The position numbers were made by a program, and so were the translations under genes. From Carboxylicivirga linearis (GTDB taxonomy: Bacteria > Bacteroidota > Bacteroidia > Bacteroidales > Marinilabiliaceae), in contig NZ_JAGUCO010000020.1 of assembly GCF_018271995.1 (NCBI RefSeq), positions 1 to 64,000 of the forward strand: a DNA stretch of 64,000 nucleotides, given 5' to 3'. Shown in pieces: positions 29,190 through 34,263 of this stretch. The notes beneath the pieces are model-generated. The model saw only the letters and a list, made by a program, of their open reading frames with translations, had not been told where the DNA came from and ran no database searches. Each line of letters opens with the position of its first letter. Position 1 is the first letter of the stretch.

Positions 29190-30535
29190 ATCTTGGTAAC
29201 AATATAGATGCAACTTTCCGAAACGGTTTGGATAAACTGGAGGTAAAACCTTCAGCCGATGTTTGGAAGGGAATCGATTCAAGATTGAATCATAAAGAAA
29301 ATAAACGAAGTATCGTAGTTATATGGGGTATGGTTGGTGCTGCATCTGTAGTAGCCGCTGTATTGACTTCAATACTATTATTTCAACCAAATTCAGTTAC
29401 TGAGCTTGGGCTATCCACATCAGTAGTTGAGGTGGAAAAGAATAACCGATATGATGAAGAAGCAGATGTTAATACAGACGAATCTGTCATGGCTTTTGAA
29501 GAGAAGTCTGAGCTTGTTATAGAGAAAGAAGAAATCAATAAAATGATGATTAAGGGTGAGCAAGATATTTTTCTGGCTCAGAACGAAGATAGTTATATGG
29601 CTGAAGATGATGAAGAACGCACTGAAGCTATCTCGCTTGAGAAGAAACTGTCCTTACTGAAGGGAAAAGGTATTTATGGTTTGGCCAATAACTCATCTGT
29701 TTCTGCAACTAAACTAAAATCTACTACTAAAAAAGAATATTATCCGCTGTACGCATATAATGAGAATTCAGAATCCAAGAAGGATTTTCAGGTTCTGGTA
29801 GGAGGAGCGCTCTCATCAGCTTATAACTACAGAAATACTAGTGGAGCACCAGTTAGGTCATATGATAACTATTCAGAATCTGGATTTAATTCAATGGGTG
29901 GGGGAATAAATGTACGTATTGAAACGAGTAAAAGATGGAGTGTTGAGACTGGAGTGGTATATGCTCAGGTGGGACAGGAAATTAGTCGCTCTGCAAATTA
30001 TCAGTCCGATCTGATGTATGGAGATGCATTGATACGAACAAGTGTGGAGTTACCCCGGACCTATACTAACTCAATGGGTAAGATTCGTTTTAGTAATTCC
30101 AGTCAGGCCCCCAATGCCAGTCTGGGATATGAATCTGTAAATGCAATTTATGATGCATCCTTGTTATCTGATGGAGATGGAATACGTCAGTCTTTAGAAT
30201 ATATTGAAGTGCCTCTGATGGCACGATATAAATTGTTGGATGGTATTGCAATTGTATCTCTTGCAGGAGGTTTTAGTTCGAATATTTTGGTGGGTAACAC
30301 AGCCTATATGCTTGATGGAAATAGTAAGATGGACATTGGAGAGACAGAAGGTATTAAACCTGTTTCGTGGAGTAGCTCTTTAGGATTAGGTTTTGAAATT
30401 CCAGTTACAAAAATAATTAGAATTGGTGTTGAACCACGATTCAAATATTACTTAGAATCAATTAGTGAGATTTCTGACTATAATTTTCAACCTTATTCAT
30501 TTTCTGTTTTCGGAGGAATTACTTTTTTACTATGA
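29183..30535 (+). CDS. Sigma-factor-linked protein: cytoplasmic N-terminus, one TM helix, C-terminal outer-membrane-type beta-barrel
   Basis: 450 residues. The N-terminal 40 residues (FRNGLDKLEVKPSADVWKGIDSRL) are a short cytoplasmic-type region common in proteins encoded after Bacteroidota ECF sigma factors. A transmembrane helix follows (about 45-66, VVIWGMVGAASVVAAVLTSILLF), then an acidic low-complexity linker (about 80-165). The last 240 residues look like a PorT-type eight-strand barrel ending in FQPYSFSVFGGITFLL. The overlap with the sigma gene and the topology suggest an anti-sigma role spanning the envelope. How the barrel reaches the outer membrane while the TM helix stays inside is unclear. 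The end converges on the ABC transporter gene (6-base overlap). Confidence 0.78.
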   Translation: MLDLGNNIDATFRNGLDKLEVKPSADVWKGIDSRLNHKENKRSIVVIWGMVGAASVVAAVLTSILLFQPNSVTELGLSTSVVEVEKNNRYDEEADVNTDESVMAFEEKSELVIEKEEINKMMIKGEQDIFLAQNEDSYMAEDDEERTEAISLEKKLSLLKGKGIYGLANNSSVSATKLKSTTKKEYYPLYAYNENSESKKDFQVLVGGALSSAYNYRNTSGAPVRSYDNYSESGFNSMGGGINVRIETSKRWSVETGVVYAQVGQEISRSANYQSDLMYGDALIRTSVELPRTYTNSMGKIRFSNSSQAPNASLGYESVNAIYDASLLSDGDGIRQSLEYIEVPLMARYKLLDGIAIVSLAGGFSSNILVGNTAYMLDGNSKMDIGETEGIKPVSWSSSLGLGFEIPVTKIIRIGVEPRFKYYLESISEISDYNFQPYSFSVFGGITFLL

Positions 30536-32323
30536 TAAAGGGTTTTGATAAACATTAATCATGTTATAAAACTCTCCCTTTAATGAGATAAGATCTTCGT
30601 ATGAACCATTTTCACATATTTCACCATCTTTTAAAACGATAATGGTGTCTGCCAGATGGATGGTTGATAATCGGTGGCTTACTATAATGGCTGTTCGTTT
30701 CTTTGTTATTTCTTTAAAATGATTGATTAGGTTAGCTTCTGTGTAGGCATCTAAAGAACTGGTAGGTTCATCCAGAATGATAACCTGGGCGTCATTATAA
30801 AAAGAACGTGCTAATGCTGTACGTTGCCATTCTCCCCGACTTAACATTTCACTATCTTTAAAAAGCGTACCAAGATGGGTGTCATATCCATCTTTCAAAT
30901 TATCGAAGATGTTGTGGATTCCTGCGTTTTTGGCGGCATCGGTTATTTGCTCCATACTAAATGGTCGTCTCATATTTCCAAAACGGATATTGTCTTTTGC
31001 CGAAACATTGTATAACATGAAATCCTGAAAAATAATACTAATATTTTCAGCTAAATCACTGGGGTGTATCTTACTTAGATTGTTTTTGTCGAACAAAATC
31101 TCTCCGTTAGTAGGTTTATATAATCCAGCTAATAATTTAACTATTGTGGTTTTACCTGATCCATTTGCTCCCACTAATGCGACTGTATGACCAGCCGGGA
31201 TTGATAAGTTAAGATCGTGAAAGACGTAACGATCTGTATTCGGATATTTAAAGCTAACATTTTTAAAAACGATTCCATTTTGCAAGGGGAGAGGGAAGTT
31301 TCCTTTAGCATTTTTTTGGGCTGGAATTTCAATATTCTGAAAGTCGAAAAAGTTTTTTAGAAACAGATTATCTTCAAGTAATGACGACATTCTTGTTAAT
31401 AATTCTTGTAAAACGGCATAGCTTCTCTGCAATGCCAAAAAGTACATAGCCATAGCTCCGTTGGTTATATTCCCTTTTATGGCTTCCGAGATAATGAAAG
31501 AGAATACAACTAAAAGTATGATGGTCGACAATATCTGAACTATGGATTCTCTAAGCGTTTTACTTTTTGAGATTGACCATTGTTTGTTTCTGACTTCATC
31601 TCTTACCTGGTTGTATTTGTTGCTAAAAGTCTTGCTTAAATTAAATATTCGAACTTCTTTAGCGAAGTCTTTTCCAACCAGTAAACGATTAAAGTATTGT
31701 AAGCGTCTTTCGTCTTCTGTTTGTTCAAGCTTCAATTCATATTCTTTCCGCGAATAATACATTCTAAAAAAAATAATTGGAATACCAATTCCTAGTAATA
31801 CAGGAATCAAAAGCCAATTAAAGGTTGTTAAAACAGAAAGCATCACAAGTAAAGTGATTGTATTTTGAAATAAACCTAAAATGCTATAGAAAACTTTACC
31901 AGGTCTGAAGTTAGCTTCATTAATCGCTCTGAAAAATAAATCCTGATAAGAGCTGTCTTCGAAATATCCGTAAGGAAGATGAACCGTTTTGCTATGGATT
32001 AATTTTTGAATATAATCTTTTAAAAAATGCGATTGTCTTTCTCTAGTTAAACTATTGACGGAGCCGCTAATGGCATTTAATAGAAAGAAAGATCCAACTA
32101 AAGATAAGGATTTTAGGATTTCGGTGTTGTTGATTGAATCAATTCCGTTTGAAGGATCAACTACATCAATTAACTGTTTTACTACTAAAAGCAGTAATAA
32201 AGGAATTAATCCACGCAGAATGGTGAGTATTGAATTTATAAAAGTCCACTTAGGAGAGCTACGATAAACCAGTTCAACGGCCCGAACCAAGTGCTTTAAT
32301 GAAAGTGAGTTCTTTTTTGTCAT
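30530..32323 (-). CDS. ABC exporter (fused permease and ATPase), peptide-export type
   Basis: 597 residues: six hydrophobic helices in the first 320 residues, then an ATPase domain with Walker A ALVGANGSGKTT (about 384), an atypical signature LSRGEWQRTAL (about 493; usual LSGGQ), Walker B VIILDEPTSSLD, and switch VSHRLSTI. There is no N-terminal C39 peptidase domain, so leader cleavage must be done by another enzyme. It is the last gene of the pqqD-precursor-kinase-peptidase cluster, 62 bases after the S26 gene, and resembles the D-type exporters of lasso-peptide clusters. The cargo is inferred to be the peptide encoded at 33735-33938. Confidence 0.9.
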   Translation of the reverse strand: MTKKNSLSLKHLVRAVELVYRSSPKWTFINSILTILRGLIPLLLLLVVKQLIDVVDPSNGIDSINNTEILKSLSLVGSFFLLNAISGSVNSLTRERQSHFLKDYIQKLIHSKTVHLPYGYFEDSSYQDLFFRAINEANFRPGKVFYSILGLFQNTITLLVMLSVLTTFNWLLIPVLLGIGIPIIFFRMYYSRKEYELKLEQTEDERRLQYFNRLLVGKDFAKEVRIFNLSKTFSNKYNQVRDEVRNKQWSISKSKTLRESIVQILSTIILLVVFSFIISEAIKGNITNGAMAMYFLALQRSYAVLQELLTRMSSLLEDNLFLKNFFDFQNIEIPAQKNAKGNFPLPLQNGIVFKNVSFKYPNTDRYVFHDLNLSIPAGHTVALVGANGSGKTTIVKLLAGLYKPTNGEILFDKNNLSKIHPSDLAENISIIFQDFMLYNVSAKDNIRFGNMRRPFSMEQITDAAKNAGIHNIFDNLKDGYDTHLGTLFKDSEMLSRGEWQRTALARSFYNDAQVIILDEPTSSLDAYTEANLINHFKEITKKRTAIIVSHRLSTIHLADTIIVLKDGEICENGSYEDLISLKGEFYNMINVYQNPLS

Positions 32324-32385
32324 TAATTTCAGATGAAATTCTAATACTAAAATAGTATTTAATTATCAGCTGTTAGAAAGGTGAA

Positions 32386-32844
32386 TCAAATATTATTTTG
32401 TGGAGAGGAATTCTTTTTCATTTTCAAATAAGCAAGAGCCGTATAGCGAATGAAAATTCTAGGGTATTTACCAAGTGTTGGCATTATTTTTTTAGCTAAT
32501 TTATATTTCCAGTGCGAACCTGATCGATATGAATTGTTTCTGGTTCTTCCAACAACAACTCCCAATATGTTTTGCTTTAATAAAACAGGATCGGAAAGGT
32601 ACAGGCTATCACCTTTACAGATAATGTTTTCCGACTCCATTTTAACTATTCTGTGCGCTACCAGAGTCTCAGTACCTTTAAAAATAACTATGTCGCCTGT
32701 AGTAAAGTCTTGCTTAGGTGATATTTTTAATCTGTCGCCAGGGAGTAAGAACGGAAACATGCTTATTCCATGTGCCAGTAATTCTGTGGTTTTTCCTTCT
32801 TCAAGGAGGTTAATGACGATATGTATAAAACTATTTTTGTCCAA
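32386..32844 (-). CDS. S24/S26-type signal-peptidase-like protein
   Basis: A 152-residue serine peptidase fold. The nucleophile is S28 in HGISMFPFLLPGD. The second catalytic residue appears to be H64 (TLVAHRIVKM) rather than the lysine of E. coli LepB; a Ser-His pair is typical of the SipW/SEC11 branch. GDIVIFKG and CKGDSLYLSDP fit the remaining boxes. There is no evident N-terminal membrane anchor, although a hydrophobic stretch at 8-14 is short. It overlaps the HPr-kinase-like gene by 14 bases. Its likely job is cleaving or otherwise processing the small peptide of this cluster; alternatively it could be an S24-type autopeptidase relative. Confidence 0.8.
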   Translation of the reverse strand: MDKNSFIHIVINLLEEGKTTELLAHGISMFPFLLPGDRLKISPKQDFTTGDIVIFKGTETLVAHRIVKMESENIICKGDSLYLSDPVLLKQNILGVVVGRTRNNSYRSGSHWKYKLAKKIMPTLGKYPRIFIRYTALAYLKMKKNSSPQNNI

Positions 32845-33727
32845 ACTCTTTTATGATTAAATCAATAATTGAAGTATCGGGTTTAAAACCAATTACATAC
32901 ACTTTGTGTTTCTGAACAACTTTAGCAATATAGTCTAATCTTTCTTTAATTTGGGTCTCATTAAAATGATATTGTATGCAGTTGCTTAATATGGATAGTG
33001 TACCGTTTGTTGTGCTTAATGGTTTTATGTAGTTTTCTGTTGATTGCTTTATTATAAATAAATTCTGAAGTTTTACCTTCTTGTTTTCGTCTTTATAATA
33101 AGGCATTGGCGTGTTATGTAGGTAGTAGTTGCCATTGTTGGGTCTTACGATAATTCTATCATCATTAATTATGGTTGCTCCTTTTTCTTGCCACAGCCGG
33201 GCCATAGTGCTTTTCCCAGTACCCGAAACTGCAGAGAACAAAAAACCCATGTTTTTATAATTAACAGCTGAGGCATGCATCACAAAACCTTTTGAATTAT
33301 GTACTATAAATTGTAGGATAAGGATTCCTATGGGATGAAAAAAAGGATCAAGTGTAATTTCTTTTTTTTCTTTTTTAACCTTTAATTGCAGGTCGATTTG
33401 CTGTGTTGACTCATTGATTCTTGCAATACCGCAATCAATATTATCATCCTTCTCAAATATAAAGTGGATGTATTTGAAAGAATCATCATAGAGGAGTTGC
33501 CATTTATAAGGAACTTCTTCTTCAAATGATTGGGCTCCTTTAAAAGCAACCTTTAGGTGGTTAAGATTGATGCTCTTAGTTTCGTTAAAATTTAAAATCC
33601 AATTTGATATTTCTGATTTTTCTATAAATAATTGACTGCCACTGTTTGATTTTAGCATAAAAAAAGGATATAAGAAATTAACTTTTATTCTTATATCCCC
33701 AATATTGTAGATGGTGCTATTTACCAT
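32831..33727 (-). CDS. HPr-kinase/phosphorylase-like P-loop kinase of a peptide cluster
   Basis: 298 residues. The C-terminal two thirds carry HASAV (H151), Walker A SAVSGTGKST (K172), and the acidic NDDRIIV (D189/D190), as in HprK and the kinase of phosphorylated lasso peptides. The N-terminal 120 residues are a beta-rich region without known family. The catalytic elements look intact. Typical HprK regulation of HPr is unlikely: there is no HPr gene here and the setting is PqqD, small peptide, peptidase and exporter. I infer that it phosphorylates the peptide precursor. It lies 7 bases after the precursor gene and overlaps the S26 gene. Confidence 0.82.
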   Translation of the reverse strand: MVNSTIYNIGDIRIKVNFLYPFFMLKSNSGSQLFIEKSEISNWILNFNETKSINLNHLKVAFKGAQSFEEEVPYKWQLLYDDSFKYIHFIFEKDDNIDCGIARINESTQQIDLQLKVKKEKKEITLDPFFHPIGILILQFIVHNSKGFVMHASAVNYKNMGFLFSAVSGTGKSTMARLWQEKGATIINDDRIIVRPNNGNYYLHNTPMPYYKDENKKVKLQNLFIIKQSTENYIKPLSTTNGTLSILSNCIQYHFNETQIKERLDYIAKVVQKHKVYVIGFKPDTSIIDLIIKEFGQK

Positions 33728-33734
33728 TTATTAA

Positions 33735-33938
33735 TTACAAATTATCATAATCAGGATTTGTTCCACCGAAAGGAGAATCGTTACTAAGTGTTGATGGGTA
33801 TTCAGGAGTCGAAGAGGGAGCTGCTTCCCATCCAGTGTCTGGAGGATCAGAAGGTACTGATGCCATAACTAAACTGATTTCCCGATCTAATTCGAAAGCC
33901 TCAATTTTTGGTGAAATATATGTTTTTTTATTCTTCAT
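33735..33938 (-). CDS. Small precursor peptide with YxxP leader motif (candidate RiPP precursor)
   Basis: 67 residues. The N-terminal part is MKNKKTYISPKIEAFELD. Y7-x-x-P10-x-I12 matches the YxxPxL/I leader motif that lasso-peptide recognition (PqqD-like) proteins bind. A hydrophobic ISLVMAS (about 21-27) may mark a processing site. The remaining 40 residues are rich in Pro, Ser, Thr, Asp and Gly with no cysteine or lysine, and end in NPDYDNL. Spacing is tight: 12 bases after pqqD and 7 before the kinase gene. Many Bacteroidota encode short proteins with a similar MKKxYxxP start. I infer that this is the substrate of the cluster; no product is known to me. Confidence 0.75.
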   Translation of the reverse strand: MKNKKTYISPKIEAFELDREISLVMASVPSDPPDTGWEAAPSSTPEYPSTLSNDSPFGGTNPDYDNL

Positions 33939-33950
33939 TTATACTTTATA

Positions 33951-34238
33951 CTATTCAATCATCTTAATTATACTTGCTTTCAATGCATTTGTTAAGAATG
34001 ATTTGATGTCAATTTGAGCAACCTCTTTTGAAACATCAAATTCTTTGCAAACAAGATTAATAACCTCTTCTTCTGATTTTGGTTCAATCAATTGTTCATA
34101 AATATATAAGCCAACTTCATTAAGAGAGAAAACTTTATTCATTTGAGCAACCTCAGAAGCAACAGGCACAATAACCAATTCGTCTCCTATTTTTTTTTCA
34201 ATAAATCCAGTTACTTTCTTGTATTTCAGATGTTCCAC
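33951..34238 (-). CDS. PqqD-family peptide-recognition protein
   Basis: About 95 residues with the PqqD/RRE winged-helix pattern: two beta strands (GFIEKKIGDELVIVPVASE), then SLNEVGLYIYEQLIEPKSEEEVINLVCKEFDVSKEVAQIDIKSFL. These proteins bind leader peptides and present them to modifying enzymes. GTG at 34238 is preferred as start; TTG at 34247 is possible. TATTTTTG at 34256-34263 (minus strand) is a perfect -7 element only about 18 bases upstream, so the leader is very short. It is first in the five-gene peptide cluster and should bind the YxxP leader of the next gene's product. Confidence 0.85.
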   Translation of the reverse strand: MEHLKYKKVTGFIEKKIGDELVIVPVASEVAQMNKVFSLNEVGLYIYEQLIEPKSEEEVINLVCKEFDVSKEVAQIDIKSFLTNALKASIIKMIE

Positions 34239-34255
34239 TATAAACAAATTAGTTG

Positions 34256-34263
34256 CAAAAATA
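34256..34263 (-). promoter_or_regulatory. -7 promoter element of the peptide cluster
   Basis: On the minus strand this reads TATTTTTG, matching TAnnTTTG. No good TTTG was found at the -33 position, so strength is uncertain. Transcription would run through all five genes down to 30530. Confidence 0.45.

What the first reader, a model, noticed from the sequence alone, without database searches (positions are those of the whole stretch)
30530..34263. Compact PqqD / YxxP peptide / HPr-kinase-like / S26 peptidase / ABC exporter cluster without a macrocyclase
Five minus-strand genes are packed with overlaps of 14 bases or gaps of 7-62 bases. They encode a leader-binding protein, a small peptide with a YxxP leader motif, an HprK-like kinase, a Ser-His-type S26 peptidase and an exporter lacking a C39 peptidase. 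In known lasso-peptide clusters the leader-binding B1 protein sees YxxP, an HprK-like kinase phosphorylates a C-terminal Ser, and a B2 transglutaminase-like protease plus an asparagine-synthetase-like cyclase finish the job. Neither B2 nor the cyclase gene is here. The cluster could make a phosphorylated, cleaved and exported linear peptide, with the S26 protein doing the cleavage. That would be a distinct natural-product or signalling system.
Basis: partly seen in the sequence, partly recalled or inferred. Interest (0 to 1): 0.87.

Follow-up and report, generated by a model that had tools for sequence, protein, structure and literature searches.

The report
Phosphopeptide maturation cluster without cyclase
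A five-gene bacterial cassette probably tags, trims and exports a small linear peptide; it resembles a peptide family described in 2026 from another phylum, but here it is kept by nearly every sampled relative in its family and often has substrate genes beside genes for giant secreted proteins.

Summary
The five genes are real and their order is conserved: 27 of 56 related cluster loci have exactly PqqD-peptide-kinase-S26-ABC. No B2 match was found in the genome, and Asn-synthase matches lie on other contigs. What differs: the text I searched does not mention Bacteroidota, where this genome appears to belong; the locus lacks the nucleotidyltransferase; the leader is longer; five relatives fuse peptidase to exporter; and the kinase occurs in 69 of 71 genomes of the window's family, whereas LPP clusters are described as patchy. 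The precursor family is large: in 98 precursors the Y of YxxP is followed by Asp at +11 (97) and Ser/Thr at exactly +20 (98). Many precursor genes are unlinked, one in this genome, and often lie 3' of large secreted-protein genes; the type IX tail model matched 28 of 34 and 24 of 29 upstream proteins at E up to 0.01, some below cut-off. Best reading: an LPP-like maturation and export pathway serving several precursors, possibly coupled to type IX cargo. Chemistry and function are untested.

The parts
33951..34247 (-). Discrete RRE (PqqD-like leader-binding protein), 98 aa from TTG (95 aa from GTG)
   Evidence: Pfam PqqD 3.8e-13; alignment A2 matches TbiB1 5v1u (2.7e-11), PbaB1 9x90 (4.5e-10) and LppB 9x8z (1.5e-6). 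Only PqqD match in the genome.
33858..33938 (-). Leader part of the precursor (27 aa, to the invariant Ser at Y+20; cleavage site inferred)
   Evidence: D11 in 97 and Ser/Thr20 in 98 of 98 precursors (the P of YxxP is required by the anchoring); a profile blind to +16 onward gave Ser/Thr in 89 of 89.
33735..33857 (-). Core part (40 aa plus stop), acidic, no Cys, ends PFGGTNPDYDNL
   Evidence: C-terminal PFG[GN]xxPD[YF]x[ND][LM] in 14 of 14 linked genus precursors.
32831..33727 (-). HprK-like kinase, 298 aa
   Evidence: S168, G169, G171, K172, T174, H151, D190, F281 invariant and D189, R191, D284 at 90% or more in 22 rows; HprK match 1.4e-4.
32386..32844 (-). Sec11/SipW-type S26 peptidase, 152 aa
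   Evidence: Ser28, His64, Asp79 invariant in 22 rows; SEC11A/C 5e-12. Fused to the exporter in 5 of 56 cluster loci.
30530..32323 (-). MsbA-like ABC exporter, 597 aa, no peptidase domain found
   Evidence: ABC_tran 2.9e-31, ABC_membrane 2e-14; TIGR02203 2.8e-85, below its equivalog cut-off.

Best explanation
The locus is an LPP-like peptide maturation and export cassette. The RRE binds the YxxP leader and presents the precursor. The HprK-like kinase phosphorylates a Ser/Thr near the leader-core junction, the invariant Y+20 residue being my best candidate. The S26 peptidase cuts at about that residue, as LppS cuts after T-1, and the ABC exporter moves the linear acidic core across the inner membrane. 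One cassette serves several precursors: the linked one and unlinked ones that often sit directly behind genes for large secreted, probably type IX, proteins. Shown here: gene order, conservation, the precursor family, the neighbourhood and co-occurrence. Inferred by homology: binding, phosphorylation, cleavage, export. Speculative: that the peptides work with the cargo.
For: Exact order in 27 of 56 loci; kinase in 69 of 71 family and 14 of 14 genus genomes; slot TsaD-cluster-OMP-sigma complete in 19 of 20 family loci fetched, the twentieth cut by its contig end. Catalytic residues conserved. S26-ABC fusions link cleavage to export; the five carriers' kinases form one clade, 98/89. Across 295 order genomes, group 1 kinase and precursor: both 23, kinase only 2, precursor only 5, neither 265; without the 14 genomes behind the profile 9, 2, 5, 265, p 4e-12, relatedness not corrected. 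LPP precedent read in PMC13381572.
Against: No biochemistry. The RRE profile scores better against lasso RREs (TbiB1 2.7e-11, PbaB1 4.5e-10) than against LppB (1.5e-6). LPP's phosphosite S3 is not conserved: Ser/Thr at core 3 in 13 of 98, if cut after +20. LPP's nucleotidyltransferase is absent at the locus and adjacent in 9 of 25 group 1 genomes. Five genomes have precursors without a group 1 kinase. The exporter alone would deliver the peptide only to the periplasm (inference). In the family the linked precursors follow TsaD and PqqD, not cargo genes. Of three cargo proteins scanned full length, the tail model gave 16.3 and 22.1 bits (cut-off 23) and no match.
Confidence: 0.7

Rival explanations
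1. The invariant Ser/Thr at Y+20 is only the P1 residue for S26; the kinase acts on variable core Ser/Thr residues.
For: LPP is cut after T-1, with F-3 in a hydrophobic cleft; here +18 is Met/Leu in 85 of 98 and +20 Ser/Thr. Every core holds at least one Ser or Thr.
Against: Signal peptidases commonly take Ala or Gly at P1 (recalled), and the LPP motif allows T/A, yet +20 is Ser 64, Thr 34 and nothing else in 98.
Confidence: 0.45
2. It is a lasso cluster whose B2 and cyclase are elsewhere in the genome.
For: RRE, YxxP leader and HprK-like kinase also occur in lasso clusters; the genome has Asn-synthase matches; the RRE profile is nearest to lasso RREs.
Against: No B2 match in the genome, none over cut-off in 21 of 25 group 1 genomes; kinases beside an Asn synthase (L072, with B2; L076, without) fall far outside group 1.
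Confidence: 0.04
3. A patchy toxin-like natural product (bacteriocin) with no housekeeping role.
For: Variable cores; LPP clusters in Bacilli are patchy and read as conflict genes by their authors. Immunity genes were not searched for.
Against: 69 of 71 family genomes carry the kinase, 19 of 20 fetched family loci are syntenic, and the linked core's C-terminus is conserved across the genus.
Confidence: 0.15
4. The cargo neighbourhood is only co-regulation; peptide and cargo never meet.
For: Linked family precursors do not lie beside cargo genes; 12 of 40 fetched family orphan loci had no qualifying upstream gene.
Against: 25 of 28 upstream genes against 5 of 226 other genes carry the tail by my own model, and the pattern recurs in other families of the order.
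Confidence: 0.4

Closest known systems
Linear polyphosphorylated peptides, LPP (LppA, K, B, S, D, N), Bacillota; PMC13381572
   Same: Discrete RRE, YxxP leader, HprK-like kinase, Sec11/SipW-type peptidase, MsbA-like exporter, no cyclase.
   Different: Apparently Bacteroidota; no LppN at the locus; leader Px14[M/L]x[S/T] in most, against Px9Fx[T/A]; no conserved S3; RRE profile nearer to lasso RREs; near-universal in a family; unlinked precursors beside secreted cargo genes; S26-ABC fusions in one subclade.
Paeninodin-type lasso peptides
   Same: B1/RRE, YxxP or WxxP leader, HprK-like kinase.
   Different: No B2 and no linked cyclase; different peptidase.
Group 2 cassettes of the same order (most of L062-L076)
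   Same: HprK-like, S26, PqqD and ABC genes; three of three tested also have NTP_transf_5. This is the published LPP core set.
   Different: Different gene order, shorter exporter, separate kinase clade.
HprK_rel_A / HprK_rel_B and ScmC (NCBIfam)
   Same: Distant kinase similarity, 3e-8 to 1e-4.
   Different: 21 to 33 bits against cut-offs of 125 to 200: not members.

Membership tests
LPP | Archaeal/Sec11-type signal-peptidase-like leader peptidase | tested here: met
   SEC11A/C 5e-12; Ser and His invariant in 22 rows.
LPP | Discrete RRE | tested here: met
LPP | HprK-like kinase gene | tested here: met
   activity not tested.
LPP | MsbA-like exporter | tested here: met
   Best NCBIfam match MsbA, below its equivalog cut-off.
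LPP | NTP transferase (LppN) in the core cluster | tested here: not met
   The genome's only match is on another contig, C137.
LPP | Precursor motif YxxPxVLxHQxIxFETxxS (Px9Fx[T/A]) | tested here: not met
   YxxP is present, but the conserved residues sit at other positions: D11 and Ser/Thr20, 97 and 98 of 98.
LPP | RRE within the LPP clade | not tested
   No set of LPP sequences was held; as a PDB match LppB scores worse than TbiB1 and PbaB1.
LPP | Polyphosphate on core S3 | not testable with these tools
   Needs mass spectrometry.
Lasso peptide | B2 leader peptidase (PF13471) | tested here: not met
   No match in the genome.
Lasso peptide | Linked Asn-synthetase-like cyclase | tested here: not met
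   All eight PF00733 matches are on other contigs.

The most novel reading that the evidence does not exclude
These bacteria run a core-genome system in which phosphorylated linear peptides are made as partners of type IX secreted giant surface proteins: one kinase/S26/ABC cassette matures a set of dedicated peptides, many encoded directly behind their cargo gene, and the peptides help deliver, fold or anchor that cargo.
Probability: 0.35. Interest if true: 0.88.

Novelty: new variant of a known kind. Interest (0 to 1): 0.72.

Why it matters
It would carry a very new peptide class, or a close parallel to it, beyond the phylum to which its authors restrict it; it shows such a cassette can be near-universal in a family and not only patchy; it offers 98 precursors with one invariant hydroxyl residue, which makes the phosphosite and cleavage question directly testable; and it gives a clue to function, the neighbouring secreted cargo genes.

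Tried and rejected
Lasso cluster with a remote cyclase: rejected. An early idea that the cassette always lacks the nucleotidyltransferase: wrong, it is adjacent in 9 of 25 group 1 genomes. L059/G051 was first counted in group 1; the kinase tree puts it with group 2, so later counts use 25 genomes and one search leaves it out. L076 was labelled group 2 but falls with the lasso-locus kinase L072. Artefact behind the Ser/Thr at +20: a truncated profile and blind anchoring gave the same result, but most loci were fetched through full-length searches, so this control is partial. The kinase structure prediction failed, so no fold comparison was made.

Literature: searches listed no paper on this cassette in Bacteroidota or on a link to type IX secretion, but one search showed 10 of 415 papers and one search showed 15 of 23, and the library holds only open-licence PMC papers. 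Of PMC13381572 I read abstract, passages and sections 6-9, 11, 12, 16 and 35; in PMC7470986 only a term search (0 hits); other papers as listings.

Rows dropped: of 73 rows, 15 had no upstream same-strand ORF of 150 aa or more within 1 kb; of the other 58, 21 TsaD rows and 3 rows (L126, L130, L134) were left out of A5, leaving 34. Of the unlinked family precursors listed, 40 were fetched, not all; none has PqqD, kinase or S26 nearby. Of 11 group 1 order loci without a linked precursor, 9 have one elsewhere in the genome; G112 and G038 have none. About 30 genomes with weak kinase matches were not fetched or placed in the tree.
Full report
Observation. PqqD is clear by Pfam; kinase and peptidase are weak alone but firmer as families: the kinase alignment keeps Walker A, a DDR stretch and a distal FxPD and matches HprK; the S26 alignment, two of whose 22 rows are from group 2, keeps Ser28, His64 and Asp79 in all rows and matches human SEC11A/C at 5e-12.

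Taxon. No call names the window's organism. I infer Bacteroidota: named Bacteroidota records (L077, L079, L080, L083-L085) carry kinases nested in the same clade, and type IX tails, as I recall, are typical of that phylum.

Conservation. A kinase search of 295 genomes of the order matched 68 at E up to 0.001. Of the loci fetched and placed in a tree, those of 25 genomes, the window's included, hold the group 1 kinase (36 of 37 rows labelled group 1 on one side of a 97/93 branch; L059 falls with group 2). The order PqqD-peptide-kinase-S26-ABC is exact in 27 of 56 group 1 and family cluster loci; the others lack one or more linked genes, some of them cut by contig ends or my region limits. Five loci (L049, L051, L053, L079, L082) fuse S26 to the exporter, and their kinases form one clade, support 98/89. 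In L044, genes that by eye look like a restriction-modification island lie between kinase and S26.

No cyclase. The window's genome has one PqqD match, no B2 match, and Asn-synthase matches only on other contigs. Of 39 related genomes searched, 6 had a PF13471 match, 5 over the cut-off, 4 of these in group 1 genomes and on other contigs than the cluster.

Known kind. PMC13381572 (abstract, passages and sections 6-9, 11, 12, 16 and 35 read) defines LPP: SpI-like peptidase LppS, RRE LppB, HprK-like LppK, NTP transferase LppN, MsbA-like LppD, precursor LppA. Deletions show that LppK phosphorylates and LppS cleaves, after T-1; phosphates sit on S3. The text says LPP are restricted to Bacillota; 'bacteroid' occurs 0 times. 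Group 2 loci of the same order carry the LPP gene set; NTP_transf_5 was confirmed in the three tested.

Differences, and results against membership. The genome's only LppN-like match is on C137; in 9 of 25 group 1 genomes one is adjacent to the cluster. The RRE profile matches lasso RREs TbiB1 (2.7e-11) and PbaB1 (4.5e-10) better than LppB (1.5e-6). The leader is longer: in 98 distinct precursors, anchored on [YFW]xxP, the first residue is Y in 98, D11 in 97, Ser/Thr20 in 98 (64 Ser, 34 Thr); the P is required by the anchoring. Cores, counted from +21, are 9-54 residues, median charge -4, no Cys in any, PF in 86. The 98 are 1 from the window, 13 from L037-L061, 5 from L077-L085, 20 from L194-L213, 19 from L214-L233 and 40 from L264-L303. 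A profile blind to +16 onward found 89 in the same loci, all with Ser/Thr at +20; using the first YxxP blindly gave 98 of 98. The absence of Ala and Gly suggests that the hydroxyl itself is needed, so I favour this residue as phosphoacceptor, or as both acceptor and cleavage residue, over a plain P1.

Core genome. Within the family 69 of 71 genomes searched hold the kinase at E up to 1e-10, 14 of 14 in the genus. Of 20 family loci fetched, the closest ones by score, 19 show TsaD-PqqD-peptide-kinase-S26-ABC followed by convergent OMP and sigma genes; the other is cut by its contig end. In G029 the cluster is split (L037, L196). The linked core ends in PFG[GN]xxPD[YF]x[ND][LM] in 14 of 14 genus members. 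The LPP authors describe a patchy distribution in Bacilli.

Unlinked precursors and secreted cargo. Searches with the precursor alignment found matches in 26 of 28 genomes at E up to 1 and in 58 of 67 family genomes at E up to 0.001; the window's genome has an unlinked one at C159:136177-136347. Forty unlinked family precursors were fetched; none has PqqD, kinase or S26 nearby. Many precursors, and outside the family many PqqD-led clusters, sit 3' of a large secreted-protein gene. TIGR04183 (type A sorting tail) matched 28 of 34 (orphans and clusters; Pfam PF18962 23 of 34) and 24 of 29 (family orphans) C-terminal ends, up to 250 residues, of upstream proteins at E up to 0.01, some below the cut-off. 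With a tail model of my own, built partly from family proteins, 25 of 28 genes directly upstream of family orphans had the tail against 5 of 226 other genes of those loci and 0 of 37 in the window; 12 of the 40 loci had no qualifying upstream gene. In the window's genome the neighbour is an 1117-residue Ig-like (Big_5) protein 17 bp upstream, tail 19.7 bits as a fragment and 16.3 full length, cut-off 23; two other full-length partners gave 22.1 bits and no match. So type IX export of the family partners is likely but not certain.

Co-occurrence. Over 295 order genomes: both 23, group 1 kinase only 2, precursor only 5, neither 265; without the 14 genomes that built the profile, 9, 2, 5, 265 (p 4e-12).

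Verdict. A real, conserved LPP-like cassette: new variant of a known kind, with an unusual near-universal distribution in its family and a strong, unexplained link of its precursors to secreted, probably type IX, cargo. Modification chemistry, cleavage site and role are inferred, not shown.

Noticed in passing
G000:C159:136177-136347 (L194:8169-8372, minus): Second precursor in the same genome, 17 bp behind an 1117-residue Ig-like secreted-protein gene.
   Followed up: yes
L088-L090, L092, L094: In Acidobacteriota and Elusimicrobiota records, loci with kinase, PqqD and S26 matches and short ORFs of the form YxxP...ETxAL(A/S)CGK (weak precursor-profile scores, E 0.1-1): perhaps another RiPP type.
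   Followed up: no
L128-L130, L133-L135: Kinase-like ORFs, four of the six in 659-682-residue open frames; five of the six loci also have PqqD and S26 matches, and in L130 an ORF with a CxxxCxxC motif (radical-SAM-like by eye) is directly upstream of PqqD.
   Followed up: no
L062-L076 (most): A second cassette of the order with kinase, S26, PqqD, NTP transferase (three tested) and ABC in varying order: it looks like the published LPP gene set outside Bacillota.
   Followed up: partly
L044:10616-14042: A DNA-methyltransferase-like gene and neighbours (by eye), resembling a restriction-modification island, between kinase and S26.
   Followed up: no
L078, L082: Records titled Methanoregulaceae archaeon and Alphaproteobacteria carry group 1 kinases nested among those of the window's order; probably misbinned contigs.
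   Followed up: partly
window 34255-34263: TATTTTTGC, resembling the Bacteroidota -7 promoter box (consensus recalled, not tested), 7 bp before the TTG start of PqqD.
   Followed up: no
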